In this document: in pieces, positions 41,576 to 62,705 of the stretch | Layout of the letters: each line of letters starts with the position of its first letter | Position numbering within the stretch: the stretch's first letter is position 1 | Origin: Eutreptiella sp. 'Long Island Sound 2002' | Taxonomy: Eukaryota; Euglenozoa; Euglenophyceae; Eutreptiales; Eutreptiaceae | DNA length: 64,000 nucleotides | NCBI GenBank assembly: GCA_964036045.1 | Contig: OZ038383.1 | Coordinates: forward strand, 6,402,430-6,466,429 | Direction: 5' to 3' | The notes under the pieces: model-generated | What the model was told of the DNA's origin: nothing | What the model saw: the letters and a program-made list of their open reading frames with translations, nothing else | The model's database searches: none | Position numbers and translations under genes: made by a program

Positions 41576-41639
41576 GACGCGGCCACGGTATGGCACACGC
41601 GAGCACGCACCCACACCCACACCGCACACACCACGCAAC

Positions 41640-43480: not shown

Positions 43481-43984
43481 CGCGGCACACCACACGAGCA
43501 ACCCGCCCCGAAAACGAACCTAGCCCACGCCGCCCTGCAGGAAAGAAACACCATGTCAGACCGCCAAGACCAACCGACCGGCCAAGGCCAACCCAGCAGG
43601 TACGAAGAGGGTGGGCAGGCAGGGCAGGCCGGCGAAGAGGGACAGAGGGACAAGGCGGGGAAAACGAGAGGAGGGGTCCGAACCCCCCCCCCGCAACGTG
43701 CACACACCCCACTGCCGCGCGCCGGGCCACAGCCGGGCACCAACAGGGCCCGCCATGGAGCCAAACGGGCCCGCGAGAGAGAGGGTGTGTCCCCGCGCCT
43801 GCGCAGCAGCACGCCCGGGCAAGGAGCGCGCGCCACACACAGGCCAAGCAGGGCACACACGCAGCACCGCACGCCAGCACGCACCACGGCACAAAAACAC
43901 GACACCACCACGGCAAACACCCACACCCGACGACGAACAAGCCGCCAAGAACAAGTCCAAGCCCCGCAGTCCCCACAGCGCGAC

Positions 43985-44335
43985 AGCCGCCGTCCGGATG
44001 GACGTGTGTGCGCCCGGCAGTGAACCCAGCCCCTGCCGGCTACGAACCAGCCGCCGTCCGGATGGACGTGTGTGCGCCCGGCAGTGAACCCAGCCCCTGC
44101 CGGCTACGAAACAGCCGCCGTCCGGATGGACGTGTGTGCGCCCGGCGGTGAACCCACCCCCTGCCGGCTACGAAACAGCCGCCGTCTGGACGGACGTGTG
44201 TGCGCCCGGCAGTGAACCCAGCCCCTGCCGGCTACGAAACAGCCGCCGTCCGGAGGGACGTGTGTGCGCCCGGCAGTGAACCCATCCCCTGCCGGCTACG
44301 GAGCAGCCGCCGTCCGGAGGGACGCGTGAGCACCC
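43985..44335 (+). repeat. ~64-65-bp tandem repeat, 6 copies
   Basis: CGCCGTCC(G)GGATGGACGTG-type units begin at about 43988, 44052, 44117, 44181, 44245 and 44308. Each ends GTGAACCCAGCCCCTGCCGG CTACGAA. They lie about 0.5 kb inside the presumed 5' end of the LINE. Tandem monomers in 5' regions act as promoters in some mammalian L1 families; here that role is only suggested by position. Confidence 0.85.
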
Positions 44336-44389
44336 GGTGCCACCTGCCGGACGGGCTACGGGACCACCGGGCCCGCGCCGCCCGGAGGA

Positions 44390-45969
44390 GTGAGTGCTCA
44401 GTTATCGCAAATCACACGCCCAATGGTACCACACCCAACACCACCCGCAAGGACACACCATCACCACCACCAAGCACGCCCACCCGCCACCACACACCCA
44501 GGGCCCGTCATCAGGGCCACCCGCCGACACCACAACCACCAAGCAGTCCAGCCACAACCACCACCACCACCCGCCACCGGCCGCCCACAACATCACCAAC
44601 AACACCCTCCCCCCCGGCAGCACTCGCGACGCCGTCGCCAAGCACACCACCATCCGCCCCACACCACACCTGCCACACCCCCACGCTCCACACCACCCAC
44701 ACCGGAAACCGCCAACACCGCCGTCCCACCCTTACCACCTGCAGCACCGTCACCATCGACGTGGCCAGCGGCACCACCATCACGCCCGACTGCACCGCGC
44801 GAACGACACGCCCACAACCAGCACCCAACCCCAAACACCCACACCGGCACCACCCACGCCGACCAGACCCCACAACACCCACGCAACGCACACACCGGCC
44901 ACGCTCCACCAGACAACACAAACCACCACACGCACGGCAACAGCGCACCCGACGCCCGCAGACCCCCCGCAACCCGCGCCACGTACACACCAACACGCAC
45001 ACCCGCACCCGACCACGCCCACCAAGCGCCCGGCGCACCGACCACCACGCGCACAGGCAACCGTCCAACGCCGGCACCGACTCCGCGGGCAGACAGGCAG
45101 ACAAACCACCCCGTCGGCATCACCAACAGCACCATCACCCAAGCCACCACCTGCGGCACCAACGCCACCATCGCCCGTTGCACCAACGGCAAACCCCCCT
45201 CCGGCCCCCCACCGCCCGTTCCCAACGCGTCACCTACGGCACACACCGGCCTCACCGTCACCCAGTGCATCGCCTACGTCACCCTCGCCATCGGCACCAC
45301 CGACGACACCACCGCCCACAGCACCCCCGGCAACACCCTACGTAGGGACAGTACCAGCGGCGCCATCAGCCGGCACACCACCTGCAACACCCACATCAAC
45401 ATCGCCACCACCCATGACATCACCCACAGCGCCCTCACCATCGACGTCACCGGCAGCACCCCCACCGCCGGCACCACCAGTCGCGCCACCACCCACTGCA
45501 CCACTTACAGCGACCACCGGAGCCGCAGGCCCCCCCAGCGCCCGCCCCGTCACCTATGACACCAACAGCGTCACCAACCCCGTCGCCGCCCGGCGCGTCA
45601 CCCGAAGCACCCAGTTCAACAACACAGACCCGTTTCGACGCCTACAGCACCCCCCCGTAGGCGTCACCAGCATCTCCTCCACCCATTGCATCGCCCACAG
45701 TGCCCCAGCCCAACCCACTGCGCCTTCGGCGCACACATACCCGACACCCACACAAACCAACCACGCCCACACTGCCCACCACCCCATCAGCCCACGCCAC
45801 GAACACACCCACACGCACGCCCACGCCCGGCCACGCCACCCAGACACTAACCAGGAGCCGCAGCCACCCACGCAAGCGCCACACCACCACTGCCGCCAAC
45901 CACCCGCCGTCAGCCCCCCCCGGACCGGCGCCCTCGGAACCGGGAGCCGACAGCGGCACAGACCCATAG
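44390..45969 (+). CDS. Low-complexity Pro/Thr/His-rich ORF, LINE 5' region
   Basis: All forward frames are largely open here because the DNA is C- and A-rich with few T. The most protein-like text changes frame: an N-terminal part near 44390-44800 (ATG in frame at 44423), a Pro/Ala/Ser-rich middle, and a C-terminal part ending RSRSHPRKRHTTTAANHPPS and GPAPSEPGADSGTDP before TAG at 45967. No known domain is present. It could be a disordered, basic, RNA-binding-type ORF or a non-coding, biased 5' region; I cannot decide from sequence alone. Confidence 0.3.
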
Positions 45970-46000
45970 CGCCGCACAGGACCCCAGCCAGCCCCCCCAG

Positions 46001-46021
46001 AAAAAACAAAAAAAAAAAAAA
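46001..46021 (+). other. Internal A-rich tract
   Basis: Twenty A in 21 bases follow a C-run. In LINE DNA, an internal A-tract can mark the 3' tail of an earlier insertion, so the sequence to the left (43481-46000) could be a separate element. Confidence 0.5.
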
Positions 46022-46330
46022 GCCAGACAGGCCAGCGAAAAGAGAGGAGTAAGGGACAGGCAGAGGAAGGGGCCACGGGGGGAGCAGACGGCAAACACGC
46101 AAGCCCACACACGCGCCCCCCCCCCCCCAGCCAACCCGACCCCGCATGTCCCGCACCCTCCCAGGAACCGCAAAGCCCAAGACCACCCCCCAGGCACCAC
46201 CACAACAGACCACCATGAGGAGCCGCCGAGGACGACACACGACACACCGCCGCCAAACACACGGTCGACACCGACACAAGCCCCACCCCCACAACCCGCC
46301 GCACCCACCGCTGCGGCGCCCCAACACACA

Positions 46331-47275
46331 ATGGTGCCCCCATGGATGCGGTACACCCCAAAAACCCCCTTCAGCCAGCCGACCAGAGGCCACCACGGGA
46401 CGCACCAAGGGGACGCCGCAGAATACCCACCCACAGTGCGGCCCCGACACCCGCTACCCACCGGCAACCTACCACGGGCCCACCCCACACCCGAGCAAAT
46501 AGCCCCCCCCCCACCGTGGAAACAATACACCCCAGCCACACACCGCCACTCACCACCCGCGGGCACCGCACCGGGGCCACAACACGCCCAAGCAGCCGCG
46601 ACCCACCGACCCGCGGACCCGGCAAACGCAATACCCCACACCACCGGGCCCACCCAACGGCGGGCCGACACCCCCAAGCACCACACGACCACACCCCCCT
46701 GGTTGCGACACTCCAGTCCCGCACACCCCGCCCCAGGGGACCCCAGGCCCCACGCCACACCGACCCCGCACAGGCCACGTACTGAAACACGCCAGGAGGA
46801 CGATCAAGAGACCACGCGGAGCTGCCCCACACCGCCAGGGGACAAACCACGGGCGACAGCCCACCCCACCAGACCTGGACACGGTGCCCCCCCCCCCCAA
46901 CGGGAAGGCCACCACACAGCACAACACCACCATACCGCACCGCACCCCCCTCCCCCACCCGGGGGCACGGGACACCACAGCCCACCAACACAGGAACAAA
47001 GCCGCGCCCCGCCGACTCCGCACCCCACCCCAACGGCACCACCCCTAGAAACCCCGCACACCTCGCGCCAGCTCAACACCCACCACCGGCCACAACCCGA
47101 ACCGCACACAGCGGCAACACCACCGGCCAGGACAGCCACAGCGTGCAGCCACACACCACAACCACGCCAAACGGGGCGCCTCCCCCGGCGCACGACCCCG
47201 CACCGGCCGCCGCACGTGCCCCGAACACCAGCATCACACGCCCACCGTGCCATGAAGCAGCACCCCAGCACGTGA
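46331..47275 (+). CDS. Pro/His/Thr-rich ORF upstream of ORF1, LINE
   Basis: The frame encodes about 315 residues. It starts at a GTG (MVPPWMRYTPKTPFSQPTRG if initiated there), and its first 200 residues contain aromatic and acidic positions (PPWKQYTPATHRH, RTETRQEDDQETTRSCP) not expected from pure low complexity. It ends at TGA 47273-47275, only 17 nt before the ATG of ORF1. No domain is recognised. The composition resembles the disordered parts of the other ORFs in this element. The true start is uncertain, as the frame is open further left. Confidence 0.4.
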   Translation: MVPPWMRYTPKTPFSQPTRGHHGTHQGDAAEYPPTVRPRHPLPTGNLPRAHPTPEQIAPPPPWKQYTPATHRHSPPAGTAPGPQHAQAAATHRPADPANAIPHTTGPTQRRADTPKHHTTTPPWLRHSSPAHPAPGDPRPHATPTPHRPRTETRQEDDQETTRSCPTPPGDKPRATAHPTRPGHGAPPPQREGHHTAQHHHTAPHPPPPPGGTGHHSPPTQEQSRAPPTPHPTPTAPPLETPHTSRQLNTHHRPQPEPHTAATPPARTATACSHTPQPRQTGRLPRRTTPHRPPHVPRTPASHAHRAMKQHPST

Positions 47276-47292
47276 ACACGCACGATGACCCC

Positions 47293-50080
47293 ATGGCCCT
47301 GGACATCGACAGCCTGCTAGAACTGGAACTCCAACACACGGAGGACACGGAGCATCAAATGGACCTCACCCCGCCGGAGCTCGAGCCCACAGCAAGCAGC
47401 CCCGCGGACCCCAACCCGCAAAATGCCCCCCCGCGCCCCCCCCCCCGCGAGAGGGCGCCCTGGACGCACCTGTCCAACGCCCTGCGGCGCCACCACCCCA
47501 CCCACGAAGCCAGCAACGGGCCCGCCGAGTACCGGGCGTCACTCGAGCACGACCTGCCCGACGTCACGGGGCCGGGACTCCACGGGTACACCACCGCCCC
47601 CCCCCCCTCCAGGCACCCCCACACAAGAATGGGAGGACGAGTACGCTGTCGACGTCACCGACATGACGGCATACATGGAAAGCGTGGAGGACCCGGAGCA
47701 AGACACCGTCCTCAGCCTCCTCGCCTACCACAGCTGGAGATGGGGCCACCAGGTCACCCTCCACCGACCGCAGGACGGGCCCCACCAGTGGTCTGCAGAG
47801 CAAACGGCGAAGTGGGACATCGTCCTCCAACTCACCCCCGAGGGCTTCTACACCCTCACGCACAGCGGAATACCCGACGCCGCACCCAATGCACAGGCGC
47901 TGCCGCTGGCCCAGCCCCAGGAGGACGACGCAGACGCAGCCCCACCGGAGGACTGTAATTGGGACCCCCCCACAGCCACCACCGAACGCATGCCGCACCG
48001 GCTCACCAAACGTCACCTCCCCCACGACTACCATGCCACCAACGACTCGCGGGGACGCCGCACACTGCCCCTGCAGTGGACATCACCCGAAGGCACCTTC
48101 ACGTGGGGGGAAATCCTCCCCGGCGCCGTGGCGCTCACGTACCTGTGGCTCCGGGACGCGGAGACGCACGCGCAGCCCCCCGGCACACACCTCCTCCTCA
48201 CCCTGGAGGGAGAGGCCGCCGTCGAAAACGTCCACACAGCGGAAGGAGAGGACTACGTGACTGCGAACGCAGACACCGCAGTATGGCTACACGCTCACAA
48301 GCACACCACACCCCCCACCGTAGTACCGGGGTCACACCCCTGGCACGTGGTCATTGTGCGACTGCCCACAGGAGCAGACACAGAAAGCGCCCAACAGGGA
48401 TGGGCGGACAGGTGGGCACACGTGTGCGCCTCCCTGCACGAAGGGCTGCACAGACCCTCCCTCACCAGTCACACCCTTGAGCCGGCCCCCACCACGGCCG
48501 AATCCCACACCGGGGCGGCCCCCCCCACCGGAGTCTGGGCCTACACGCGCATCCTCCACCGCGAGGCAGCGGAAGCCCTCAAGACCGCCATCTCCAACCA
48601 CCAGGGCCTCGTGCACACCCCCCACGATAACACACAAAAGGGCTACACCCTATGGTGGCACCACCCCGCACCAGAAGGGGGCGTGCAACCACCGGCAGAC
48701 CAGCCTGGCATCGGCCCAGACCTCACGGCGATCGCCCGCGCCGTCGCCGCCATGGCCCAGCAAGTTGGGGCGCCACCCCAGTGGGCACCGTCCATCATCA
48801 AGGAAACGGCGGCACGCCACAAGCCAGCTTTCGCACACTTCCGGGGACGCCCCATTCATCCCACCCTACCGGACCTCGACCCCCCCGCCCACGATGCGTG
48901 GGCAGTCCACATCCTCGTGCCCCACGACACCGCGCCCAAAACAGGGGACGCGACGGCACGCATCACCAAACAACTCCCCAATACCGCACTCCACTACGAC
49001 ATACCAACGCCCAACGTCATCGTCACCCACAACACGGGTCGCGACCACTACTACCTCCAGGCCACTCATGAGCGCTCCCCCATCACCGTATACACCTTCA
49101 CCACCTACCCTGGCCTCCAGCCACCGCAACACCACCCGCGCCCGGCATGGAAGCATCCCCTACACGTCGCCCCGACCCCACGCAAAAGGCCAACCCACCA
49201 CGCGCCCCCTCCCGCCGACAGCACCGCCCTCCACACCGCCCGCAGACGGGCCGCGGCACACCACCAAAGCCACCTGCTCCCACGCATTAACGCCAGACCC
49301 GGCACCGTCACCGAGGCCACCCACAAAGGCACCTTGAACCTACTGGCCCGCAAGCTACGCCCCAAATTGGCACTGGAGGACACGTTCTGGATATACTATG
49401 GCGAAGGCCGCACGGCACGGGTGGCGGACCTCCGCAACATCATCCCCCGCCACATCCAGCGAGCGGTAGGGCCCTTCACCGTGTACGCGGTACCGCACCC
49501 CATAACAGACCCATGCACCCACTGCAACCCTCGGTGCGCGCTACCATGCGCAGGCGCTCTGCAGCAACCCCTGCCCACCCCTACCTACAGGGGGGGCATA
49601 TACCTCGGCACGGTACCCGGGGACCCACACCCCTACCTCCTGCCCGCAGCGGACCGCCACCACGCCATACCACTACACCTTGTCGAGCACCTGGCGGTGG
49701 GACCATCCCCCTTCCAGAAGCGCCCCCCCCACACCCCATCCGACGGACGCCCGCCAGATGAGCCGACACACGCCACACCTGGACCCAAACGCGCCATCGC
49801 ACTCCTCACCCTAAAGGCGGAAGCCGCCATCCCCCGAGACCTGGAGGGGGAAAACCACCTCATGGTGGAAGGGCTGACGGAACACGTCCTGATCGCAGCC
49901 ATGTACGCCACGGCGTCCGCATCCCGCCTCTGGGAGGACCGCCCCTCCCCACCTCTAGCCCAAGCAGCGCAGGACGCCCCCGACACGGGCCCCACCGCCG
50001 AGGACATCCACCAAATCCTCAACATGCGAGCACCCCCGAAGACCCACCCTGCGGTCCGCCCCATCCAGCTCGTCAGCTGA
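47293..50080 (+). pseudogene. LINE ORF1-like protein, ~930 codons, one frameshift
   Basis: The ATG at 47293 opens MALDIDSLLELELQHTEDTE and reads naturally to GLHGYTTAPPP. Then an 11-C run (47597-47607) shifts the frame, and the rest continues from TQEWEDEYAVDVTDMTAYME to a TGA at 50078-50080. The long C-terminal part is a balanced, globular-looking protein (TWGEILPGAVALTYLWLRDA; LNLLARKLRPKLALEDTFWI) with a Cys cluster CTHCNPRCALPC near 49510. It occupies the ORF1 position, where LINEs encode an RNA-binding nucleoprotein. No RRM or CCHC knuckle is recognisable, so the role is inferred from position. The run length may be a sequencing error, in which case the gene is intact. Confidence 0.55.
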
Positions 50081-50086
50081 GACGCC

Positions 50087-51126
50087 ATGGACGCCCCCTG
50101 ACCACCACGGAGGTCCACATCCTCAAACACCGGGACACCTGGTGGACGGTGGAATGGAACGACCACGGCAAGGTCAGACGGGCAACGGCACACGCCCCCG
50201 ACGGCGAAGTCCCGCCCCCACCACGCGGAGGAGACCGCTTGCGACTCGCCGCACGCATCCCCGACGCCCCAGAGGCAGCCTGGGAAGCGCTGCACTACGC
50301 CCTCTACTGGGCGCAGGGTACGCCAGAAGGCCCCCTCCCCCCGGAACGCACCCCAGCGTGGACACGCCACGCCACCCGCTACACGGCCCACATGCGCCGC
50401 CACGGGGCAGGCACCGGGCACCGGCTCCTCACCTGGCCCACAGACCCGCCCGATGCCCTGCAGGAGGCCGAGGAAGTGCTTGGCCTCATGACCAAGCAAG
50501 TGTTCCAGCTGACGGACCCCGTCCCCACTTCCAAGCCCGACGTCCCAGCCGCCCGCGAACACCCCGTGTTTGCACCGGGCCACGCACCCGTACAGCGGCC
50601 CCAGGGCGCACCTCCCCAACCGGGACAACCCGCTGCCCGGCGCCGCCAAGGTGCGCAGAAGCGCAAGGCCCCCACACAGGCCAAACCCGCGCCAAAGCCA
50701 AGGGCCAAGCCGAAGAGCTGGACCAAAGAGGAAGCCGCTGCCCTGTATCCCGAATACGCCATCAAAACCCGGGTGCAGCTGCCCTTCGAGTACCCCACGG
50801 CCGCGGGCCCCTCCAAGTGGATATGGGCCGCAGGGGAGGTCAAGCACCGGTACCTCGTCACCGAAGACCACCAGGGGTTCAAGATCCACGTCAAGTGGGA
50901 CCCGGCCACCCCGAACGACAAGAAGCTGGGGCGCACCATCGAACTCTGGCGAGACCAAGCCGGCCGTGAGATGGTCCCCATGCAGCTGTGCACCCCCGAC
51001 ACGGAGCACCTCACCGGCACCGAGTACACGCGCGAAGTCCACAATGCATGGGCCTTACCCCAGCCGCAGATGCGGAACCGCAGGGCACCCGCAGCTCAGG
51101 GCATCATCGACCTCCTCGACGCCTGA
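50087..51126 (+). pseudogene. LINE ORF, ~345 codons, N-terminal part of the ORF2 frame
   Basis: An ATG lies 6 nt after the ORF1 stop. Its frame closes at once (ATG GAC GCC CCC TGA), but one extra base at the C-run would join it to TTTEVHILKHRDTWWTVEWN and on to IIDLLDA and TGA at 51124. The protein has a small globular N-terminal part, a basic Pro/Lys hinge (QKRKAPTQAKPAPKPRAKPK) and a second globular part (WIWAAGEVKHRYLVTEDHQG). No family is recognised. The same frame runs on into the endonuclease region and RT, so this may be the N-terminal domain of ORF2, separated by a nonsense mutation (CGA to TGA). Confidence 0.5.
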
Positions 51127-52521
51127 CGGGGCCAGGGCCGGACACGGCCCGCCCCCCCAACTACCGGTCCCCAGAAACCGGCGCCTGCGGAAGCCCACGC
51201 CCGCATCAACATCCTCAAAGAGCCCGCGGTCACCTACGACCCCACCAAGGCCGCCACACTGCAAGCCATGCCCGGGCCGCACCCCCAAGGCGCAGACCTC
51301 CTGGGGTTCCTGGAGCAAGCCCTCCGCAGAGCGGACCAACCCGAACCAGCACCGATCCTGGACCCAGAGGGGAACAAATATCACGCCCACTGGGAACGGG
51401 GGGTACCCCTCTACCACAAGACGTCGGTCACGGTACATGCCCACCCCGACCTCGGAGTGGATGGTCGCCTCGGCACGTACGAGTGCGTGGGGCCCGGATG
51501 GCAGCTAAACGTGCTACTCACGCACGTCCCGTTCGGGGAGGAGACCAAGGACTTCCTGGACACCCTGAGCCTGGCGTACCGTCGACTCTCCCTCCTGGCA
51601 CCCACCATCATCATAGGCGACCTAAACGCCGCCCCCACCGACGACGACCGCACCGGCCCACCCACAGCCACCGACACAGCTGTCCGGGACGCCATGCACC
51701 AACCGGGCCTCACCGACCTCACGGCAAGACTCACCGGCACACCCTCCGAATACCCCCACCAAGCCGGCACCCACCCATCCCGCATCGACACGTGCTACGG
51801 GGACCCAACCACGGTGCGCGTCCACGAAGCAGCCTACGGGGACCTCCCGCCCACAGGCACGGGCCACCGGCCCCTCTACATCGACCTCATCATCCCCAAC
51901 CTACCCCCACCCGCGGCCACCCTGCCAGACGACACCCTCCCACCCACACTGCAGTTCCCGGCCGAGGACGACCACGGCGCCTGGCACAGATATAACAGGG
52001 CCCTACACGCCATCCTGCGCCCCCCGAGTGCACCGACACTCACCACCGCCATGCGCCGGGCGGCACAAGCATGCGGCATGGAGCGTGACACCAACCACAC
52101 GGGAGCACCGCCAGACCTCACCCTCCAGCAACTCGTCCATGACATCTGGACCACGAAAGGGGAACTCGCCACCCTGCTACGCCCCAGCACACCGGAGGCA
52201 CGAGACCAGGACGCCCACCTCCGTGCGCTCCTCAACACCCGCCGCCACCAACTCCAGGAATGGCACGCCCACCGCATAGCGGCCGCAGCCCAAGAACGCG
52301 AAAGATACGGCAGAAACGACACGCCGTACAAGTCCCTACGGTACGTCAGCCGCATCCTGGAGGACACGGGGCGCCGTACCATCCACGCGGTACGCACCCC
52401 CGAAGGAGGCCTCACCAATGACCCCGACGCCGTCCTCCAGGCAGTCCTGGACAGCTTCCAGGCACAACACGGGGACGCCCTCCCCGAGCTCGACCCCCAC
52501 ACCAGAAACACCATCCGCTAG
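51127..52521 (+). pseudogene. LINE AP-endonuclease-like domain
   Basis: In LINEs this domain nicks the target DNA to prime reverse transcription. Visible signatures are IIIGDLNAAP (about 51607; Asp and Asn of the catalytic site), HPSRIDTCYGDP (about 51775) and a final GTGHRPLYIDL (about 51858), where His replaces the usual SDH context. The first two catalytic motifs (an N-terminal Asn and the Glu of the QET-like motif) are not recognisable between 51127 and 51500, so the domain may be degraded or diverged. The frame is continuous with the ORF to its left (TGA 51124) and with the RT (TAG 52519). An isolated start would be the ATG at 51268. After the nuclease comes a helical linker. Confidence 0.7.
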
Positions 52522-55500
52522 CATGTGCCCAGGGTCTTCAACCGGGAACAGCGGCGCGCCATCGAACACGACCCTTTCAGCATCTCAGAACTGCAACGCG
52601 CCCTAGACCGCCTGAAGAAGGGGGTCGTGCCCGGCGTCGACGGTTTGCCGGCCGAAGCGTACCAACGTCTCACCCTGCCCATCAAACGCCGCCTGGCAGC
52701 CCGCCTGTGGGACATCGTCACGGGCGCCACGCCCATCCCCCCTGAGTGGGCCAACCTGGTCCACCCCCTCTACAAAAAGGGGGACTGGGCGCAGCCGGGG
52801 AACTGGCGGCCCATAGTCTGCGCCACCACCGAGGTCAAGCTGGTGTGGACGCTCATCCTAGGCCGCATCGCGCCAGCGGTCTTCGCCCACGTGCCCGCCA
52901 GCATGTGGGGAGCCATGGCCGGCAGGTCCCCCCACGAGGCCATCTTCCTCCAGGACACCGCACTGGACATGAACCCCTACGAGATGATCATCGCCTCCCT
53001 CGATGTCCAAAGCGCGTTCCCCCACGCCCCACACCGGCTCCTCAGGGAGGTATGGGATGCCATGGGCCTCCCATTCCTATCCTTCATGACCGGGTACATC
53101 CAGACCCGACTCTACGCCGTCATCACGGCCGCGGGCCTCACCCCCTGGACCGGCACAGACAGCGGGGTCCCCCAGGGAGGCGCCGAAGGCCCCTTCCTCT
53201 ACCTCCTCGTCACCCTGCCACTGGCATTCGAGCTAGCACGGGTATACCCGGGGTACGCCCCATACCCGCTACGGTCCCCCCTCATCAACTTCGCAGATGA
53301 CAACCTCCTCACTACGGCCACCCGCCACCGCGACCCTGAGAACGCAGGGCTACCAACGACCAACGAACAAGCGTCCGCCATTCTCCAACTCACCACAACC
53401 TACCTGGACGCCCACCAGCTCCTAGTGCACCCCCGCAAATCGGTCGGGCTGGCCGACGCCAAGACCCCCACCCCCCACATCCGGAAAGGCGAACCGCTAC
53501 ACCTGGAAGACACCACAGTCCACCTGGGAGTCACACAGGCCACGCGGCACCACCACATCACACTCCCAAGCAAGCTAGAAGAGCGCCTCGCCCGGCTACC
53601 CCAAATTGCCAGGGGGGACCTCCTGTCTACGCAGGGCCTGGCGTACTTCATGGAAGCAGTGCTCAACGCGGCCATCGGGTACCAAGCCCTGCACCTCCCG
53701 CGCCCCCAAGACACACTACGCCACGCTCGACAGCAAGTGACGAAGGCATGGGCGCAACACGGAGGCTGGCCCACGTCTTTCCCCAAGGAGGCCATGATGG
53801 CCCACTGGCGCTACTACGGAGACAATACGGGCGCCCTGGTTGACATGGCCTATGCCAAACACGCAGCACACCTCCTACACAGGGTAACACACAACCACCA
53901 ACCAGAAGTTCGCGAGGCGGCAGCCATACGCATAAAAGAAGCGCAAATGGCCCGCAACACCTGCCCCCGGTGGATACTGGCGCAACACGGCGTCTCCACC
54001 CCCGTGGGCACTGGCATCTGGGCCCAGCTACAACTCCTCCTACCGCACCACACACACGCCATCCTGACAAACCACCACTGCGATCAACAGGGGCCACTCG
54101 TGGCCACACACACCGACATCCACCGACGCCCGGCAGGCGAGGTGGACACCCTGCGCCTCGTAGGGGTCACCATCACCATAGTGTATATCACCCCAACACA
54201 GATGAAGATCATGGCCCAATGCGACGCCCACCACGCCCCGTTCCTTTCCGACCCACAATGGCCAGCACGCCGCGTCTTCCAAGCGTACCTCCGCGCGTGT
54301 GCTCCGAAGGCAGGGCGCGACATTCCGGGGCCCAAGGACATCGACACGGCGTACACAGCCTTCCAGCGCCAGCACCCCCGGCCCCGCCCGAGCGAGCACG
54401 AGACTCCCAACGACGGCGGCACGACGCAGGGGGAGCCCACCCCGTCAGCCGAAGGCTGGACACCACCCACGATCCTGCTACTAGCACCAAACGGCCACAA
54501 ACATGCTACCCGCACTGTCCAGCGACACCATGCCCCCTGGTCCATCCCCAAACACAATGCACCGGAGACCGATGTACCACCAGTCAGACACAGTGACCAG
54601 GGCATACCACGCACGTGCTGGCACTGCGGCCCGGCAGCCCTCGACACTCCGTGGCCCCTGCTGCACCTCATCTCCACCCACTACCGCACCCCCACCGCCG
54701 CCGCCACCGCCGACCAGCAGGCATGGCTCTCCCCCTGGTTTCACACGGTACCCCCAGACCACCCGGCGCACGTAGCCTGGACCCGAACACCCACGGCGAC
54801 AGGGACGTTCACCAACGAGCAGGCAGACCCAGACAGCGTAGCCATGGAGTACGACCGCTGCGACCCACACCGCGCAGGACCTCAGGAAGCACCCATGCGC
54901 CCCCTACAGCACAAATGCCCCACCCTCCGCGGCGACAAAGACGACAAGGAGCGGCGACAGACCATCACGTGCCAGAAGTTCCACCCCAATACGGGATACC
55001 TCTTCCACCTGATGTACGCGTATATCACCCAGGGACGCCCAGACAGGGGCCTCCTCCGCCTCACCCAACGAGCCCACACCATCATCACCCAGGGAATAGG
55101 CGTCTATGCAGCGCCACTACTGCAACCCACGCAAATCACCGCCAGAACCACCCAGGGGAAACCCATCTACGTCTATCACCCCACAGCAATCGCCCGCCTA
55201 CCCATACCCAGCGACACCGACATCATCTACTTCACTGACGCATCCGGCACCCAGCAACGCACCCCCACGGTCGGTTGCGCCTCCGTGCGCATCACCCGGC
55301 ACGCGGACGGCCTCCACGTGGAACACCACACCGGGACCACCATCTTTGGGGCGTCCTCCCACGGCGAACTGCGCACCATGGTAGACGCCGTCACCGCCAC
55401 ACCGCCACCCACGACGGTCCGGCCCCGCAACATCTGGGTACTCGTGGACGCCACCGTCGACATCCACCTCACCAGGCGCCTTGCGGACCTGCCCCTCCAC

Positions 55501-56451
55501 AAAGCACTCGAGTCCGGCCTCACCACACAAGCGTTGGGACTATGGATGGCCTTCAAGGGCATGCACCCCCAGGACGCCCTACACATCGTCAAGCAGGAGT
55601 CACACCGCTACGCATACGGCAATGGACGCGCAGACACGCAGGCCAAACACCAGAACACCAACCACACCCCAGGGCTCGAACGCGTGCGACTGGACACCCC
55701 ACACCACAGCCACCTGCAGCACCTGCCCCCGATACCCCTGGCCACACAGCCCCCCCAATGGATGCCCGAGGACACGCCGTACACTGATCTAGACAAGCAG
55801 TACCACTACCCCACACCCATCCAGCAACTGGCCACCACACTGGGCCACCCAGCGAACACCAAACTCCTCCGTTGCCTCGAAGACTCCGTCCACACCCCCC
55901 TCTACTACTCTGCCCTGCGCCCGGATAGCCTCCCAGCACACCTACAAAAGCCCCGACTCCAACTCGCCCTCGAACAACTTCCCCTCCTCACCCGATACCA
56001 CCGATGGTATACGCGCCGCTCGATCCACGTCCCCGCAGGACACACCAAATGCATCTGCAGCCACGCGGAAGAAGAAACATGGGACCACTTCAAGGCGTGC
56101 CCCCTGTACAGAGGACTGGACACCCTCACAGACTGGAACCCAACCCACACCATCGCACAGCACGCCGGATGGCTGGCGCAGTCCCCGGCGACCCAGCAAC
56201 TCACCACCGTCCTCAAGCAGACGGAGGTGCTCGAGGCAGTCCGCAGGGGACTCGTCCCCACTGCCGTCTACACCTTGCTACGCACCCACGCGGAGGACCC
56301 CCAGGCCACGGCGGCGCACATGCAGCGGACGGCCGTTGCCAAGACGGCGGAGCAGCTCACATACCGCACCCACAAATACCTGCAGCATGCGGCAACCCTG
56401 CCCCCAACAGACCAAGCCCACCTCCTCAAACTCCTGTTCTACCAACCATGA
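52522..56451 (+). CDS. LINE reverse transcriptase with RNase H and CCHC tail, 1,309 codons
   Basis: This performs target-primed reverse transcription. RT motifs in order are KKGVVPGVDGLPAEAY, GNWRPIVCATTEVKLVWTLI, SLDVQSAFPHAP (catalytic Asp about 53000), GVPQGGAEGPFLY and NFADDNLL (catalytic FADD about 53287). A long thumb/linker follows. An RNase HI domain spans about 55219-55650 (residues ~899-1040), with Asp in YFTDASG, Glu in SSHGELRT, Asp in VLVDATVD, His in ESHRYAYGNG and Asp in GRADTQAK. A C-terminal finger C-x-C-x8-H-x4-C (CICSHAEEETWDHFKAC) lies at about 56049-56100, as in many LINEs. It lacks an ATG next to the TAG at 52519, in line with one long ORF2 broken by that stop. It ends TGA, overlapping the ATG of the next ORF. 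Confidence 0.93.
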   Translation, partial: HVPRVFNREQRRAIEHDPFSISELQRALDRLKKGVVPGVDGLPAEAYQRLTLPIKRRLAARLWDIVTGATPIPPEWANLVHPLYKKGDWAQPGNWRPIVCATTEVKLVWTLILGRIAPAVFAHVPASMWGAMAGRSPHEAIFLQDTALDMNPYEMIIASLDVQSAFPHAPHRLLREVWDAMGLPFLSFMTGYIQTRLYAVITAAGLTPWTGTDSGVPQGGAEGPFLYLLVTLPLAFELARVYPGYAPYPLRSPLINFADDNLLTTATRHRDPENAGLPTTNEQASAILQLTTTYLDAHQLLVHPRKSVGLADAKTPTPHIRKGEPLHLEDTTVHLGVTQATRHHHITLPSKLEERLARLPQIARGDLLSTQGLAYFMEAVLNAAIGYQALHLPRPQDTLRHARQQVTKAWAQHGGWPTSFPKEAMMAHWRYYGDNTGALVDMAYAKHAAHLLHRVTHNHQPEVREAAAIRIKEAQMARNTCPRWILAQHGVSTPVGTGIWAQLQLLLPHHTHAILTNHHCDQQGPLVATHTDIHRRPAGEVDTLRLVGVTITIVYITPTQMKIMAQCDAHHAPFLSDPQWPARRVFQAYLRACAPKAGRDIPGPKDIDTAYTAFQRQHPRPRPSEHETPNDGGTTQGEPTPSAEGWTPPTILLLAPNGHKHATRTVQRHHAPWSIPKHNAPETDVPPVRHSDQGIPRTCWHCGPAALDTPWPLLHLISTHYRTPTAAATADQQAWLSPWFHTVPPDHPAHVAWTRTPTATGTFTNEQADPDSVAMEYDRCDPHRAGPQEAPMRPLQHKCPTLRGDKDDKERRQTITCQKFHPNTGYLFHLMYAYITQGRPDRGLLRLTQRAHTIITQGIGVYAAPLLQPTQITARTTQGKPIYVYHPTAIARLPIPSDTDIIYFTDASGTQQRTPTVGCASVRITRHADGLHVEHHTGTTIFGASSHGELRTMVDAVTATPPPTTVRPRNIWVLVDATVDIHLTRRLADLPLHKALESGLTTQALGLWMAFKGMHPQDALHIVKQESHRYAYGNGRADTQAKHQNTNHTPGLERVRLDTPHHSHLQHLPPIPLATQPPQWMPEDTPYTDLDKQYHYPTPIQQLATTLGHPANTKLLRCLEDSVHTPLYYSALRPDSLPAHLQKPRLQLALEQLPLLTRYHRWYTRRSIHVPAGHTKCICSHAEEETWDHFKACPLYRGLDTLTDWNPTHTIAQHAGWLAQSPATQQLTTVLKQTEVLEAVRRGLVPTAVYTLLRTHAEDPQATAAHMQRTAVAKTAEQLTYRTHKYLQHAATLPPTDQAHLLKLLFYQP

Positions 56452-59400
56452 GAACCTACCCCGTGACATACCAACACGGAACCCCCACCACGTCTACACA
56501 CCGTCCACCGAGCACAGCAATGGAACAGCACACACGGGCGCCACAGGCACCGCACACGCTCCCACCAGCATGCGCGCGCCACCAGCCCCCATCCCCCCAC
56601 GCCGCCGTCCGTCCACAGGTACCACCAACCACCAGCCACCTCATGTCCCTTCTGCGTTCGCCAGCGGCTACCACAGACAGCCCTGCCCTGCAACCCAGAC
56701 CACTGGGTCTGCCTGGGAGCCGCGCACCGCCCCACCCACTGCCCCCATTGCGGGGACCTCAACCCCCGCCACCGCGAACGGCCCGCGGCCCCAGCCGCAC
56801 CCCCCCCCCGCCAGCCACCCCAGCTTCTTCGGGTTCCTCACCGACACCCTCCGGGACCAACTGGGAGGGTACACGTGGCGGACGCGGCGGACCACGCATG
56901 GACCATAGCCGTGGCCTCGGGCAACACACCCCTGCCCCCCCACAGCCCACCCCTACGCCACAGCGGAGGCGGCTTGAACGTGGCGGCCCGCCACATCCTC
57001 CTCGCCCTGTACCTCCACCAACGAGACCTACACCTCCCAGACTCACAACTCCCGGCCCCCCAAGCAGCAGCCCTGACGCCGGAAGCGTGGGCCGACACGG
57101 CACCAGAGGAGATAGCAGCCTACCTCCGAATCACTTGCCGCCGGTTCAAACACGCCCTCGGCCGACGGCAAGGAACACCTTACCCACTCAGCGCACTCCT
57201 CTACCCGGCACACCACCCCCACCCCGCACAACAGAAGCCCCCGGAGGGCTGGCCGTCTTTTCGGGACGCCCACCTGGCCGCCCCCGACGAGGCCCCCGCC
57301 ACGCGGATGGGCCTCACGGACCAGGAAGCCTACGTCAGAGGCCTCAAGACGAGCCTCCAAGAGGCACACCGCTGGCACGCCCGCTCCCCGTCGCCCCCAC
57401 GGGGACAGGGGGGTTCACCCGCCCCCGACACCCACCAGGCCAAGAAGACCAAGACAGGTCAGGGGGCCCGCCAACGCGCCCGCCAGCAGGGCGCGACGCC
57501 CCAACCAAGGCTCGGGTCCAGCCACACCGCACCGCCCCACGCCCAGACCCCCGGGGCACACCAAAAACACCACCACCGCCAGCGCCCACCACCACCACCG
57601 TACCGTAGCACCCAAACCCTGCAGCCCAGTCAGCCACCACCGCCCACACACGTCCACACCATGCCAGGACCACCGTACGCGCAGAGCCAGGGGACATGGC
57701 ACCACCAACACCACCACCACGCCCCCGTCCCTCCCAACCCCTACCCCCTAATGCCCCCATGCTACAGCGACCCCCACCAGCTACATCCCCACCACGCCCC
57801 AGCACAACCAGGCCCCGCGAACCACCCACCCCACATAGCGCACATCACCGCACCACACCATCACGTATACCACCACCACCAGGCCCTGCCACCACACCCA
57901 CCAACGCCGGGGTACCACACACAACCGGCACACCCTCCACACCACCACCACGCGGTCCAGCACCACCCGCCGCCCCCGCTACACGGGCCCACGACATACG
58001 AGCCACGGTACACCCCCATGGACCCGCGAGGAACCGCGCACGCACACCAGCAACACCAGGGCCTAGTAGGAGCGCCCCACCACCACCAACAGCCCCCCCA
58101 CCCACACCCCATACCAGCGAGCACCATCCACCAGCAGCCACCCATCACATACGGACCACAGCCCCACCCGGGGGCTCATGTGGTCGCCTCCCACCCGCAG
58201 CCCGGCACCACAACCAGTCAAGAACCGCAAGGGCCACACGGCGCACACACGCAACACCCACACGATCCACAGGGACGCCCGGACCCCCAGCCAGCACAAC
58301 ACCCACCCCAGCCCCCCCCACCCCACCACCACCAGCAGCCCCCCCACCCACACCCCATACCAGCGAGCGCCATCCACCAGCAGCCACCCATTACATACGG
58401 ACCACAGCCCCGACCGGACGCCCATGCGGCCGCCTCCCACCCACACCCCGGCACCACAACCAGTCAAGAACCGCAAGGGCCGCACGGCGCACACACGCAA
58501 CACCCACACGACCCACAGGGACGCCCAGACCCCCAGCCAGCACAACACCCACCCCCGCCCCCCCCACCACCAACAGCGCCACCCCCACACCACCCCCCCC
58601 CGCCCCCCCCCCGAGACCAGGCCACGGACACAACACGCGGCAGCCAGCACCAGCCAATTGACGTCGATACCCCCGCCGACACACGCCACCGCGAATCCCC
58701 CCTCCCGCGACCGCCACAAGAGACCCCATCACCGGACCCCACGCGCGACAACGACGACCACCCCCCCCAACCCACACCACCCCCCCCATCACACCCCGCA
58801 CCACCAGTCGCCGCACCGGCCGAACCCTACGCCCTACACAACCCCGCAGCGGTACGGCAGCACCTCCGAGGACTCGGGGAACAGGATGTCGTGCTGTACC
58901 TCCGCACCTCCGGCACCAGCACCCCCATCCGGGCGGCCACCCTGGTCCAGGCGGCCACCCTGGGGGAAGGCGTCAGAGACTTCCTCTTCGACGCCTTCCT
59001 CCACGTCGCCCGACACGAGCGCCCCCAACGCGCCACCCCAGACGGCGAGAGCCCGCCCCCCACGGGGAGCCGGATCTGGGTGCCCCCCATCGACTGGGGG
59101 CGACACCTGGTCGGACACCCCGTGCCGGAGCGGGACAGCACCCAGGGCCGCACCCGCTACCGCGAGCCCAACATGGCCCGACCCCCACACGACGCCACCC
59201 CCGACAGCACCAAAGAGTGGGAGCGGGAAACATGGGTAGCCCGGATGGCCTCCCTAAGCAACTTCCGGCGCCACGTCCCGGGGGACATCCCCACCCCCGA
59301 CGAGCAGCAGCCAGCCCCCTCCACGTACATGACCCTCATGTACAATCTGCACTACACCCTCTCCACCACCACCTACGACGCACCCACAGACCACTGGGTG

Positions 59401-59916
59401 GTACACGGCACCGACTCCCTCCTCCCCGCCGGCTACACCCCCCCCCCACACAACCCAGGCCCCGACACGTACGCCAGGGGGGACGACCCGGACGACCCCC
59501 ACATCTGGGGCACGTGGGAACCCGAATCCCTGGACACGCTGCTCTCCATCCGCAGCGGCTACCAGGGCCTTGGTAGGGCGATGTATTGCCTCGCCAAGTG
59601 GACCCAACGGACCTGGGGGATCCCCAGGGACCGATGGGTGTGGGTGGTCACGCTGCGCCCCCAGCAGAGGGAAGCCCCCCCAAACCGCAGGGGACCCACC
59701 CCCCCACGCCCCATCACCCTACAACTATGCCCGTACATGGTGGCAGCCCGCCTCATGACGCTGCTATGGCCGGACCCCCACACCCCCACCCAAAACTACC
59801 CCCACCTCACAGAGGAGGACATGCCCGGCATCCAGCGATGCTTCTTCCGGACCCTCGACTACCTCCAGCAAACACACCCCCACGTCCTGGAGCAGATATG
59901 GCCACCCCCCGGGTAA
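56448..59916 (+). pseudogene. LINE ORF3, ~1,150 codons, RING-like finger and His/Pro repeats, frameshifted
   Basis: The ATG at 56448 overlaps the RT stop (ATGA). The frame must shift by one near 56590 to reach a Cys/His cluster at 56644-56751: C-x2-C-x11-C-x3-H-x2-C-x4-H-x4-C-x2-C (CPFC, LPCNPDHWVC, HCPHCG). This is RING-like in spacing except at the sixth ligand. After a C10 run (56800-56809) the text SFFGFLTDTLRDQLGG is one frame over; then it returns to the frame that stays open from about 56875 to 59916. That part holds a helical domain (VAARHILLALYLHQRD), a long His/Pro-rich region with a two-copy 82-aa repeat, and a globular C-terminal domain (LGRAMYCLAKWTQRTWGIPR). No function is known. 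A homologue after the RT is unusual for a LINE. Confidence 0.55.
58081..58572 (+). repeat. 246-bp tandem duplication inside LINE ORF3
   Basis: Two copies, offset 246 bp (82 codons), encode QQPPHPHPIPAS, IHQQPPITYGPQP, PGTTTSQEPQGPHGAHTQHP and DPQGRPDPQPAQHPP. Because the period is a multiple of three, the frame is kept. Confidence 0.85.
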
Positions 59917-61342
59917 CCCACGTGCCCGCGCAGCCGAGACAACGCCGCCACGCCAACACCAGCACGCACGGATCACCAGGGAAAACGCGCGCACACGCCC
60001 GATGCCCGAACCTGCACCCTCGTTCTCGCTACTTACAGGACCCAGCATCATACGCCCGCCCCCGAGGCCCGGGACCCTCCGCCGTCTCCCGCAGCCCTCT
60101 CCTCCGCCTCCCACTCCACAACCTCCACCACCACGACCACCTCATCCACCACCACCACCACGTCCTCATCCAGCACTCCACCCCCCAGGCCGCGCGGGAC
60201 ACCTCCCAAACGGGCCTCCAAACCCGCCCCCACCGCGAGCAGCCCCGCCGCCGCCAAGGCCCACGCCCCGACGAAGCCCACGCCCACGACCCAGCCGAAG
60301 CCCAAGACCGCCGCCAAACGGCAACCCGCAGCCAAGCCCAAACCCAAGCCCAAACCCGGCGCCACGACGGCAGCGCGAGCCCGGCCCCCCGAGGATGTCC
60401 TCTACGACATCCGGCCCCAGCCGTCCCAGGCCCGAAGGCAGCAGCGCCCAGCGCGGCGCCCCCCCACCGTCACCGACGCCACCGCCACCACCTTCATGGC
60501 GGAGCGCGCCGCGGCCGAAGCGCGACGCGCCTCGTCCCGCCACCTCCCAAAGCCCGCAACCCAGTCCCACGGACCGCTCCCGACCAAGCCAGAACAACGC
60601 CAGGGTCCACCAGCAGCGTCCCCGCCCCCCTACCGGCCCCCGATGACAGCCCACATGCAACGCATGCCCCACTACCGCCGCCGCCGCGAATCCCCGCCCA
60701 ACCCCGAGGCGGAGACCGTACGCGCACACCCGCGGGTCCACATCCGCGTGCACCCCCACTCCCCACGCACCCCCACGGAACAGGACTACGAAGAATCCCC
60801 CAGGCCCCCCACCGCCGCCGGTCCCCACAACCCCATCACACCCACCCACGCCCACTCCTCCGCCCAAAGACCGCAGGCCCGCCCAGGAACAGTGGTGGCA
60901 GCGCTGGACCCACACGCAGCTCTGGGAGCTGCGGAAATGGGCCCGGGGAGAGCCCTCCCTCGAGGGCCTGGTCCATCGGCCCCGCAAGGGGTCGGTGGAG
61001 AACTGCCGCCTCCGGCCGGCGGGGGGGTGGATGCCGCAGGCCGCATGGGAAGCCATGCTGGCCGATGCGCTCCACCCCCTGGGAGTCCACCCCCGCAACC
61101 TCCCCGCGCCCCAGGACCACCCGTATGTCCTCAGGCGCCTGCGGGAGACCCTCCAGGAAACGCGGCGAGACGGCATCCGCCTGTGGGACATCACCCAAAG
61201 CCCAGCCCCGCACGCACACACCCCCTCACCACCCCACAAGCGTCGGCGCACCGACACCGGCGACACCCACAGCACCCCAGGAGCCCTGCGCGCCACACAA
61301 CACGACGCGCCTGACCCCCCGGCCAGCGGCGCCGCCATCTAA
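59898..61342 (+). pseudogene. LINE ORF4, ~480 codons, basic Pro/Lys-rich protein, frameshifted
   Basis: The ATG at 59898 (MATPRVTHVPAQPRQRRHAN) overlaps the end of ORF3 by 19 nt. The natural text then moves one frame near 60100 into a Ser/Thr run and a strongly basic stretch (PTTQPKPKTAAKRQPAAKPK), followed by PPEDVLYDIRPQPSQARRQQ and MAERAAAEARRASS. Near the C-rich 60800 region it moves again to QEQWWQRWTHTQLWELRKWA and WEAMLADALHPLGVHP, ending at TAA 61340-61342. A Lys/Pro/Ala tail followed by a small Trp-rich domain suggests nucleic-acid binding, but no family is recognised. Frame changes make it either decayed or mis-sequenced. Confidence 0.45.
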
Positions 61343-61966
61343 CCCCGTTACCCAGCACACCAACACCACGGGGCGCCACGCCAGGCCCCGCCCAAAAGTC
61401 ACCAAACGAACCGGACGCCGAAGGAAGCCAACGCACACGACAACGAGCACCACTACGCCCAAAGGCGCCGAACCCAGGCCCGATACCGTGGGCTCCTCTC
61501 CACCCTCAGCACGACACACACGTCACTGACGTCACTCCTCCGCCGTGCCCCCTCCCACGCCACCGCCCCGCCCCCCCCCCTCCCGCCGCACGTCCCCACG
61601 CCGCCCAGCACCCAGCCCCACACACTGCGCCACAGCATCGCCCTAGTCCGGCTCCTCCACCATCGCGCCACTTGGCACCTCACAGTAGACCGCCGTCCTG
61701 TGGTCCCGCTCCCCCCAGCACTGCTCCCGGGGCCGCACCCGGCCCACGTGGTGTTCGCCCCCACGTCGAGGGCCGCGGACATCCTCCCGCTCCTCGCCGC
61801 CGGCCCTCCCGGGCATCGCATACTGCTTGCCGCCAACCCCTCGGTCCTCAGTGAGGTCCTCATCGGGCACGCCGACGCCCTGCACGTACGCCCGCTGCTG
61901 CCCAACCTGCACGCTGCGTACGCCCCCGGCACGCCCGTCGACCCCTCCCTGTGGGACTCCCAGTGA
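61343..61966 (+). CDS. LINE ORF5, 207 codons, no ATG, directly after the ORF4 stop
   Basis: The frame of the end of ORF4 stays open immediately after its TAA for 207 codons to TGA at 61964. It has no in-frame ATG, so it would be reached by readthrough or be the C-terminus of ORF4 behind a CAA-to-TAA mutation. The text is a Pro-rich linker followed by a compact segment (LRHSIALVRLLHHRATWHLT, VVFAPTSRAADILPLLAAG, ILLAANPSVLSEVLIGHADA) that looks like a small alpha/beta domain. It is not recognised. Confidence 0.45.
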   Translation, partial: PRYPAHQHHGAPRQAPPKSHQTNRTPKEANAHDNEHHYAQRRRTQARYRGLLSTLSTTHTSLTSLLRRAPSHATAPPPPLPPHVPTPPSTQPHTLRHSIALVRLLHHRATWHLTVDRRPVVPLPPALLPGPHPAHVVFAPTSRAADILPLLAAGPPGHRILLAANPSVLSEVLIGHADALHVRPLLPNLHAAYAPGTPVDPSLWDSQ

Positions 61967-62483
61967 GGCCACCGGCCAACGGCCGGCCCGCACGCACCAC
62001 CCCGCACTCGCCTCGGGCGCACAACCCCGTGGACGCCGCTACCCACACGCCCGGCCCCGCGCAACCGCCTAACCGAGCCAGAACTCAAGCGGAAATAAAA
62101 CCCGAGCCACACCCCGAAACCGCTAACCCTTGACTCCTAACCAAACCCGCCGAGGGAACAACGTAACCACAGCCCACACCCACAGCCCGCACAGCCGCCT
62201 AACCAGCCAGCTCCAGAAGCAAAGAGACACCTCACCAAACCCACCCTGACCCAAGCCCGTGTACATCAGGACGCACGAGCCGCACCCCTGGGGCGCGACT
62301 GCCGCCACAGCACCGACGACACACGCCAGAGGACACAACGCTATTGCACCGCCGCACCAGCTGCCCGTGCCTGTGCCTGCAGTGTACGCGCGCCCCTGTT
62401 TTTCTCTTTTTTGTTTTTCTTTGTTTCTTTCCAAAAAAAAAAAACACAAGTAAAATAAAAAAAAACAAAAAAAAACGAAAATT
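61967..62483 (+). other. LINE 3' region with T-rich/A-rich junction
   Basis: About 430 bp of GC-rich non-coding DNA are followed by a T-rich tract (62399-62430) and then an A-rich tract (62433-62483). The A-rich tract could be the 3' tail of the LINE. The back-to-back T-rich tract could be the tail of an opposite-strand insertion, or the two could pair as a hairpin. Confidence 0.55.
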
Positions 62484-62529
62484 AGGGGGGGAGGAAAAGG
62501 GACACAACCACCCATGGCACACGCGCACC

Positions 62530-62705
62530 GCACACAGCACACACACCGGTGAATAGGAGCCCAGTGGCCCAGGGGACCGCACATGCAACACAACACACCG
62601 AGCGAGCACACCGGTGAACAGGAGCCGGCTGGCCCAGGACACCGCAGACGCACCACAGCAAACCGCGCGGGCACACCGGTGAACAGGAGCCCAGGACACT
62701 GCACA
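62530..62705. repeat. 66-bp-type minisatellite, 3 diverged copies
   Basis: CACCGGTGAA(C/T)AGGAGCC recurs at 62544, 62609 and 62674 (65-bp spacing) with the GGCCCAGG-ACCGC continuation. It is clearly related to the 41640-43480 array, on the other side of the LINE. Confidence 0.85.

What the first reader, a model, noticed from the sequence alone, without database searches (positions are those of the whole stretch)
43481..62500. A ~19-kb non-LTR retrotransposon with several extra ORFs on both sides of the RT
The RT/RNase H ORF (52522-56451) is unmistakably LINE-type, yet the same strand carries a large ORF1, a basic two-part ORF before the nuclease, and three further ORFs after the RT (about 1,150, 480 and 208 codons). 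Known LINEs usually have one or two ORFs in 4-8 kb. Dense same-strand packing suggests the extra ORFs belong to the element and are not flanking genes. If so, this is an undescribed LINE architecture in which post-RT proteins travel with the element.
Basis: partly seen in the sequence, partly recalled or inferred. Interest (0 to 1): 0.88.

Follow-up and report, generated by a model that had tools for sequence, protein, structure and literature searches.

The report
Giant four-gene LINE retrotransposon
A self-copying DNA element of a known class (LINE) appears here in an oversized form of about 15,000 bases or more, with two extra genes after its copying enzyme and a stray piece of a second LINE in its tail, which suggests that such elements can carry more than their usual one or two genes.

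Summary
47.1-62.1 kb is a degraded copy of a high-copy LINE. Proteins from other copies, apparently in one large assembly, indicate four ORFs. ORF2 (~1,775 aa: APE, RT, RNase H-like motifs) is split here by an in-frame stop. ORF3 (~1,150 aa) and ORF4 (~485 aa) follow the RT. The 208-codon ORF is not an element gene: 61.49-62.06 kb is a fragment of another LINE's ORF2 end and 3' UTR, present in two other copy types and absent from two, probably four. Each ORF junction is contiguous in at least one independent copy (ORF2-ORF3 in only one), and truncated copies begin inside ORF1, 2, 3 and 4, as expected of one RNA primed at its 3' end. The ORFs abut in ways that suggest coupled translation: UGA-CGG plus hairpin (ORF1/2), AUGA (ORF2/3), overlapping AUG and stop (ORF3/4). 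ORF1, ORF3 and ORF4 match no known domain. The own-genome search did not complete, so true copy counts, the 5' end (43.5-47.1 kb) and the host are untested.

The parts
43475..47142 (+). presumed 5' untranslated region of the LINE (T-poor; contains the 64-bp repeats); membership untested
   Evidence: Lies between the end of the 65-bp array and ORF1; weak codon phase (52 of 1000 shuffles) and ORF lengths as in resampled sequence. It was not used as a query; in the tables printed no sense-strand match of a fetched protein starts upstream of 47,099.
43983..44337 (+). 5.5 tandem copies of a 64-bp unit in the presumed 5' UTR
   Evidence: TRF, 94% matches
47293..51126 (+).
   Evidence: In other copies these pieces are read in one frame (P0105 n=187, P0082 n=74, P0106 n=61, P0081 n=45); 12 rows (clusters standing for 146 sequences) end at the stop 51,124. 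No Pfam match; no PDB match below E 0.3.
51124..51155 (+). candidate readthrough or coupling signal: UGA-CGG followed directly by an 11-bp hairpin
   Evidence: -24.2 kcal/mol, z -3.0, 1 of 200 shuffles as stable; in a 150-nt stretch z is only -1.2, 26 of 200; off-frame readings of P0021 and P0159 keep the residues coded here
51127..56451 (+). ORF2: APE endonuclease, reverse transcriptase, RNase H-like motifs, C-terminal Cys/His knuckle (the last two by eye); broken here by an in-frame stop at 52,519
   Evidence: Pfam; P0001, 1,727 aa in one piece, 97% identical, cluster of 469
56448..59916 (+). ORF3 (~1,150 aa): Cys-rich N part, His/Pro-rich middle, conserved C part (58.8-59.9 kb); an AUG at 56,448 overlaps the ORF2 stop (AUGA) but lies in another frame than the 56,467-59,916 frame of this copy
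   Evidence: Codon phase for N and C parts; relatives at 57-95% identity in other copies; no Pfam match, no PDB match below E 0.7
59898..61342 (+). ORF4 (~485 aa), Lys/Pro-rich basic part and small conserved C part; its AUG overlaps the end of ORF3; frame-broken in this copy
   Evidence: P0125, P0144, P0150 start exactly at 59,898; 8 rows end at 61,336-61,339; no Pfam match
   Evidence: 84-89% identical to the C-termini of P0138 (n=8), P0143 (n=32), P0139, P0140, P0145, several of which carry RT, RNase H-like or APE sequence upstream; present in P0122, P0083; absent in P0130, P0135 and, judged from their last residues, P0142, P0161
62063..62432 (+). rest of the LINE's own 3' UTR
   Evidence: First 75 bases match the tails of P0130 and P0135, where they follow ORF4-end sequence directly
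62433..62481 (+). A-rich 3' tail
   Evidence: sequence; TRF
41612..43474 (+). 65-bp satellite array left of the LINE (probable target)
   Evidence: TRF and self-BLAST
62516..62708 (+). further 65-bp units right of the tail
   Evidence: mostly 74-83% identical to the left array
39525..40219 (+). left copy of a 695-bp direct repeat flanking the locus
   Evidence: 99.1% identical to 63,282-63,976
63282..63976 (+). right copy of the 695-bp direct repeat

Best explanation
A degraded copy of an oversized APE-type LINE. One long RNA carries ORF1, ORF2 (APE-RT-RNase H), ORF3 and ORF4 and ends in an A-rich tail; ORF2 nicks DNA and copies the RNA from its 3' end, so many copies are cut short at their 5' ends (inferred from truncation points). 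ORF2 has no in-frame AUG before its APE domain and is probably made by reading through the ORF1 stop (UGA-CGG plus hairpin) or by restarting there; ORF3 and ORF4 by stop-start coupling at overlapping codons (inferred). ORF1, ORF3 and ORF4 probably act as RNA-binding or particle proteins (weak inference: basic, Cys-rich, low-complexity parts). A subfamily took up ~570 bp of another LINE's 3' region into its tail.
For: APE and RT domains. High copy: 26 of 69 RT hits are 84-97% identical, clusters of 469, 425, 158. Contiguity in other copies: ORF1-ORF2 (P0021, P0030, P0095, P0159), ORF2-ORF3 (P0009: 53,797-56,034 then 56,030-56,974), ORF3-ORF4 (P0070, P0104, P0110, P0120, P0133, P0134, P0158), ORF4-tail (P0122, P0083, P0130, P0135). 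Element sequence begins after foreign sequence inside ORF1 (48,470; 49,118; 49,214; 49,304), ORF2 (53,596), ORF3 (57,243; 57,880; 58,927; 59,782), ORF4 (60,676). Codon phase. Hairpin at the ORF1 stop; type II readthrough as described in PMC11166343 (passages); SART1 stop-start coupling in PMC5972666 (passages).
Against: ORF2-ORF3 contiguity rests on one other copy (P0009). ORF3 rows are one-member clusters (one has two) while several ORF1 and ORF2 rows have dozens to hundreds; length limits of the search may explain it (calls starting at 58,891 would be 341 aa, below the floors of 376 and 632), but this was not shown. In-frame versus off-frame identity in the same protein: ORF1 6 of 7, ORF1 C part 3 of 7, ORF2 11 of 15, ORF3 C part 2 of 7, ORF4 C part 4 of 5 higher in frame: no sign of selection on ORF3. 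No target-site duplication found. The whole locus lies between 99.1% identical 695-bp direct repeats, unexplained. 10 of 117 rows end in foreign sequence (three of them LINE B) against 28 that begin with it (nine LINE B).
Confidence: 0.78

Rival explanations
1. Composite locus: an ordinary two-ORF LINE (ORF1, ORF2) with another mobile element or host genes (ORF3, ORF4) lying downstream by chance.
For: ORF3 relatives come in clusters of one or two members; only P0009 crosses the ORF2-ORF3 junction; a piece of another LINE is shown to be in the tail.
Against: P0009 continues 523 bases past the ORF2 stop at 90% identity; ORF2 stop and a start codon overlap; one continuous T-poor strand; copies that begin within ORF3 or ORF4 exist, and P0073, begun in ORF3, runs on into ORF4.
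Confidence: 0.13
2. The mobile unit is a 24.4-kb LTR-like element bounded by the 695-bp direct repeats, and the LINE merely lies inside it.
For: 695-bp repeats 99.1% identical flank 40,220-63,281; 65-bp units on both sides of the LINE; P0072 carries, in antisense, the 65-bp array and the sequence up to 63,089 next to a truncated ORF3 elsewhere.
Against: Repeats do not start TG or end CA; no protease, integrase or LTR-type RT found in the ORFs scanned between them; copies that begin at many points in the LINE are not explained by LTR exchange. It may still be right for the surrounding repeat, into which the LINE inserted.
Confidence: 0.05
3. ORF2 is made by reinitiation at a non-AUG codon or another route, not by stop-codon readthrough.
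For: Another family in the same search (P0027, P0050, P0057) has Met directly before the APE domain; SART1 uses stop-start coupling with downstream structure (PMC5972666, passages).
Against: No in-frame AUG between 51,127 and 51,268, though residues upstream of 51,268 align with the APE start of other families; stop context UGA-CGG with hairpin is the type II readthrough arrangement.
Confidence: 0.4
4. The downstream ORFs are only products of the T-poor strand and code for nothing.
For: Long ORFs also occur by chance at 43.5-47.1 kb; middle of ORF3 has weak phase; no selection signal for ORF3.
Against: ORF3 N and C parts and ORF4 parts b and c have codon phase not reached in 1000 shuffles; ORF4 start and stop are shared by divergent copies.
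Confidence: 0.05

Closest known systems
LINEs with RNase H (I group, plant L1, Proto1, Dualen/RandI; list from PMC4640811, passages)
   Same: RT with RNase H-like motifs, here with APE; A-rich tail; copies cut at the 5' side (general LINE traits from established knowledge)
   Different: two further ORFs after the RT and a length of 15-19 kb; ORF1 of ~1,280 aa without known domain; clade not determined here
Terminons (giant elements of rotifers; PMC6431247, passages and section 5)
   Same: giant retroelement with RT and accessory ORFs
   Different: Terminons belong to Penelope-like elements without endonuclease; this one has an APE and its RT matches LINE-1 ORF2p
SART1 and its stop-start translation (PMC5972666, passages)
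   Same: overlapping stop and start codons between consecutive ORFs, structure just downstream
   Different: here up to three successive junctions, one of them UGA-CGG without a nearby in-frame AUG
SINE-LINE shared tails (PMC3747384, passages)
   Same: 3' sequence taken from another LINE
   Different: here an autonomous LINE carries an internal piece of a second LINE's coding end, not its terminal tail

Membership tests
non-LTR retrotransposon (LINE), APE type | RT domain | tested here: met
   RVT_1 E 7.7e-16; best PDB matches are LINE-1 ORF2 protein, E 3e-4
non-LTR retrotransposon (LINE), APE type | APE endonuclease N-terminal to RT in one protein | tested here: met
   P0001: APE and RT in 1,727 aa
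non-LTR retrotransposon (LINE), APE type | RNase H domain (some clades) | tested here: inconclusive
   FTDAS, GEL, VVDATVD and GNG..D motifs kept in P0015 and largely in P0036 (by eye); no Pfam or credible PDB match
non-LTR retrotransposon (LINE), APE type | many dispersed copies, often 5'-truncated | tested here: met
   clusters of up to 469 members; ten rows taken as starting inside the element after foreign sequence (from 28 listed). Genomic positions were not seen.
non-LTR retrotransposon (LINE), APE type | A-rich or microsatellite 3' tail | tested here: met
   62,433-62,481; not checked in other copies
non-LTR retrotransposon (LINE), APE type | target-site duplication | tested here: inconclusive
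   no shared stretch of 9 or more bases near the left boundary; a 12-base match at 41,590 lies at the start of the 65-bp repeats
LTR retrotransposon | LTRs with protease, RT-RNase H, integrase | tested here: not met
   no protease, integrase or LTR-type RT in the ORFs scanned between the 695-bp repeats
Penelope-like / Terminon | PLE-type RT, no APE | tested here: not met
   APE present and RT matches LINE-1 ORF2p
Dualen/RandI | both APE and restriction-like endonuclease | tested here: inconclusive
   no second nuclease in Pfam scans of ORF1-ORF4 pieces; divergent ones could be missed; RT tree not built

The most novel reading that the evidence does not exclude
A LINE family of 15-19 kb with four ORFs on one RNA, in which ORF1-ORF2 is a gag-pol-like readthrough fusion (UGA-CGG plus hairpin) and two post-RT proteins are made by stop-start coupling, and which can rebuild its tail with pieces of unrelated LINEs: a virus-like gene order evolved in a non-LTR element.
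Probability: 0.45. Interest if true: 0.78.

Novelty: new variant of a known kind. Interest (0 to 1): 0.62.

Why it matters
LINEs are pictured as compact, with one or two ORFs (established knowledge). An element with two proteins encoded after the RT, still abundant, would show that target-primed reverse transcription can sustain RNAs of 15 kb or more, and would give a system for asking what extra LINE proteins do. It also shows LINE-to-LINE capture of coding sequence, and a possible case of stop-codon readthrough joining LINE ORF1 and ORF2. My searches (open-access papers, listings only) listed no such architecture by title or abstract start, which is not proof of absence.

Tried and rejected
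Own-genome search: not completed (see below). RT relatives in viral contigs and genome contigs: none confirmed. Rfam and tRNA scans of the window: nothing. Domain searches of ORF1, ORF3, ORF4: no Pfam family, and only chance-level PDB hits, E 0.3 and above. Structure models of the ORF3 C part and of ORF1: mean pLDDT 31 each, unusable, so no fold search was run. By eye the ORF3 C part recalled Ulp1/C48 cysteine proteases; hhalign against the SENP1 domain scored no better than shuffled SENP1 (48 of 100 as good): rejected. ORF3 C part or ORF4 as relatives of the C-terminal part of ORF1: no. TGA read as Trp: not adopted, since Trp is TGG (28 times) in the RT ORF and the TGA closing ORF1 lies where 12 other rows end. 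Classical twin-priming inversions: P0085 and P0121 carry inverted pieces, but in the wrong order, so not claimed. Selection on ORF3 from in-frame versus off-frame identity: no signal. From the 28 rows that begin with foreign sequence I dropped nine LINE B rows, four low-complexity starts near 60,350 (P0129, P0131, P0136, P0146) and five others (P0078, a chance match; P0085 and P0121, inverted element pieces; P0124 and P0162, unclear), which leaves the ten starts listed.
Full report
What is there. The RT ORF at 52,522-56,451 and the APE nuclease upstream are real LINE domains. The strand from about 42 to 62 kb is extremely poor in T, so long open frames occur by chance: in 43.5-47.15 kb the longest ORF is no longer than in resampled sequence (fraction 0.346 of 500), whereas the 1,309-aa and 1,149-aa ORFs exceed all 500. 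A codon-phase model trained on the RT ORF gives 0 of 1000 shuffles for ORF1 (two parts), APE, ORF3 N and C parts, ORF4 parts b and c and the 61.5-62.0-kb piece, 18 of 1000 for ORF4 part a, 27 for the ORF3 middle, 52 for the 5' region and 308 for the 3' UTR.

Other copies. Three protein searches (69, 8 and 87 hits, each with capped or length-limited candidates) return relatives from what looks like one assembly: several contig lengths recur between lists, e.g. 7,809,745 for P0003 (ORF2) and P0161 (ORF4). Of the 69 RT hits, 26 are 84-97% identical (this family) and 43 are 26-57% (among them P0015, 50%, 758 members; P0036, 42%, 210; P0066, 39%, 352). P0001 has APE plus RT in one ORF of 1,727 aa with 469 members, so the in-frame stop at 52,519 is not a family trait. 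Source 'ena' gives no organism; the host is unknown, though by its retroelements eukaryotic (inference).

ORF1. In other copies the piece 47.1-50.1 kb and the piece 50.1-51.1 kb are one frame (P0082 n=74, P0081 n=45, P0106 n=61, P0108 n=25), and 12 rows, clusters standing for 146 sequences, end at the stop 51,124. P0105 (n=187) reads the N-terminus from 47,143 in one frame.

ORF1-ORF2 junction. The frame after 51,124 has no AUG until 51,268, yet residues upstream of 51,268 align with the APE start of other families, some of which have Met there. The stop is UGA-CGG, followed directly by a hairpin of -24.2 kcal/mol (z -3.0; 1 of 200 shuffles; in a 150-nt stretch z is only -1.2). Its inner helix starts 8 nt after the stop. 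This is the type II readthrough arrangement described in PMC11166343 (passages). Off-frame readings of P0021 and P0159 keep the residues coded here. Readthrough is inferred, not shown.

ORF3 and ORF4. An AUG overlaps the ORF2 stop (AUGA, 56,448), though in another frame than the long ORF3 frame of this copy, and the ORF4 AUG (59,898) overlaps the end of ORF3 (stop 59,914). P0125, P0144 and P0150 begin exactly at 59,898, and 8 rows end at 61,336-61,339. P0009 runs from ORF2 to 56,974, the only copy seen across that junction. ORF3-ORF4 contiguity is seen in P0070, P0104, P0110, P0120, P0133, P0134 and P0158. ORF3 rows are one-member clusters, except P0104 with two; eight of them start at 58,891, from where an intact call would be 341 aa and thus below the length floors of both searches. 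That may explain the lack of large ORF3 clusters but is not proven.

Truncation. Of 117 rows at 60% identity or more (nine of them LINE B), 28 begin with over 40 residues that do not match the element and 10 end so. After dropping nine LINE B rows, four low-complexity starts and five unclear or inverted ones, ten starts remain: ORF1 (48,470; 49,118; 49,214; 49,304), ORF2 (53,596), ORF3 (57,243; 57,880; 58,927; 59,782) and ORF4 (60,676). This is what 5' truncation of one long RNA would give; that these copies reach the common 3' end was not seen.

The last ORF. 61,541-61,963 is 84-89% identical to the C-termini of P0138, P0139, P0140, P0143, P0145. P0138 has RT sequence (RVT_1 E 0.009, below cut-off) and RNase H-like and Cys/His motifs (by eye), and P0139 an APE part (E 4e-5, just below cut-off): a second LINE, B. 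P0130 and P0135 pass from ORF4-end sequence directly to sequence matching 62,063-62,137; P0142 and P0161 leave the window's sequence at about 61,490, which suggests the same; P0122 (n=13) and P0083 (n=5) carry the B piece. So about 570 bp of LINE B sit inside this subfamily's tail; the 208-codon ORF is mostly its remnant.

Boundaries. The left boundary is taken where the 65-bp array ends (43,474); upstream of 47,099 nothing was compared with other copies, so 15 kb is supported and 19 kb is likely. The 65-bp units on both sides, and P0072, where the array and its right neighbour sit in antisense next to a truncated ORF3, suggest insertion into that repeat. No target-site duplication was found. 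The 695-bp direct repeats (99.1%) outside are unexplained.

Function. ORF1, ORF3 and ORF4 have no Pfam match and no credible PDB match, and structure models failed for ORF1 and the ORF3 C part (pLDDT 31); ORF4 was not modelled. Basic, Cys-rich and low-complexity parts suggest RNA-binding or particle proteins; this is a weak inference. In-frame versus off-frame identity gave no sign of selection on ORF3 (2 of 7; ORF2 11 of 15).

Comparison. The element works like an APE LINE. PMC6431247 (section 5 and passages read) describes giant elements of other classes, among them Terminons, and in what I read no giant LINE. Paper searches listed no LINE with ORFs after the RT (titles and abstract starts only).

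Noticed in passing
7944-24961: Ty3/gypsy element with chromodomain (pol pieces 17,185-20,490) and ~3.0-kb LTRs 95.8% identical; an inverted partial copy lies at 2,313-7,943, and an inverted LTR piece at 24,961-26,738.
   Followed up: partly
39525-40219 and 63282-63976: 695-bp direct repeats, 99.1% identical, bracket the LINE and the 65-bp arrays; the right one is preceded by an (ACCT)n run. Could be a long target duplication, a terminal repeat or a rearrangement.
   Followed up: partly
36683-37561: 16.6 copies of a 53-bp satellite.
   Followed up: no
41118-41495: 4.6 copies of an 82-bp repeat shortly before the 65-bp array.
   Followed up: no
P0121, P0085 (database proteins): In a cluster of 29 members (P0121) a piece of ORF1 is inverted in front of ORF1 sequence; order does not fit simple twin priming.
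   Followed up: no
P0090: LINE sequence beginning at 49,304 follows directly on gypsy pol sequence 96% identical to window 18,043-18,540.
   Followed up: no
P0066, P0065: A related LINE family whose proteins are Lys/Arg/Glu/Gly-rich instead; P0066 stands for 352 sequences and shares a contig length with P0108.
   Followed up: no
31352-31689 and 32614-32962: Two tandem pairs of 185-bp and 194-bp units.
   Followed up: no
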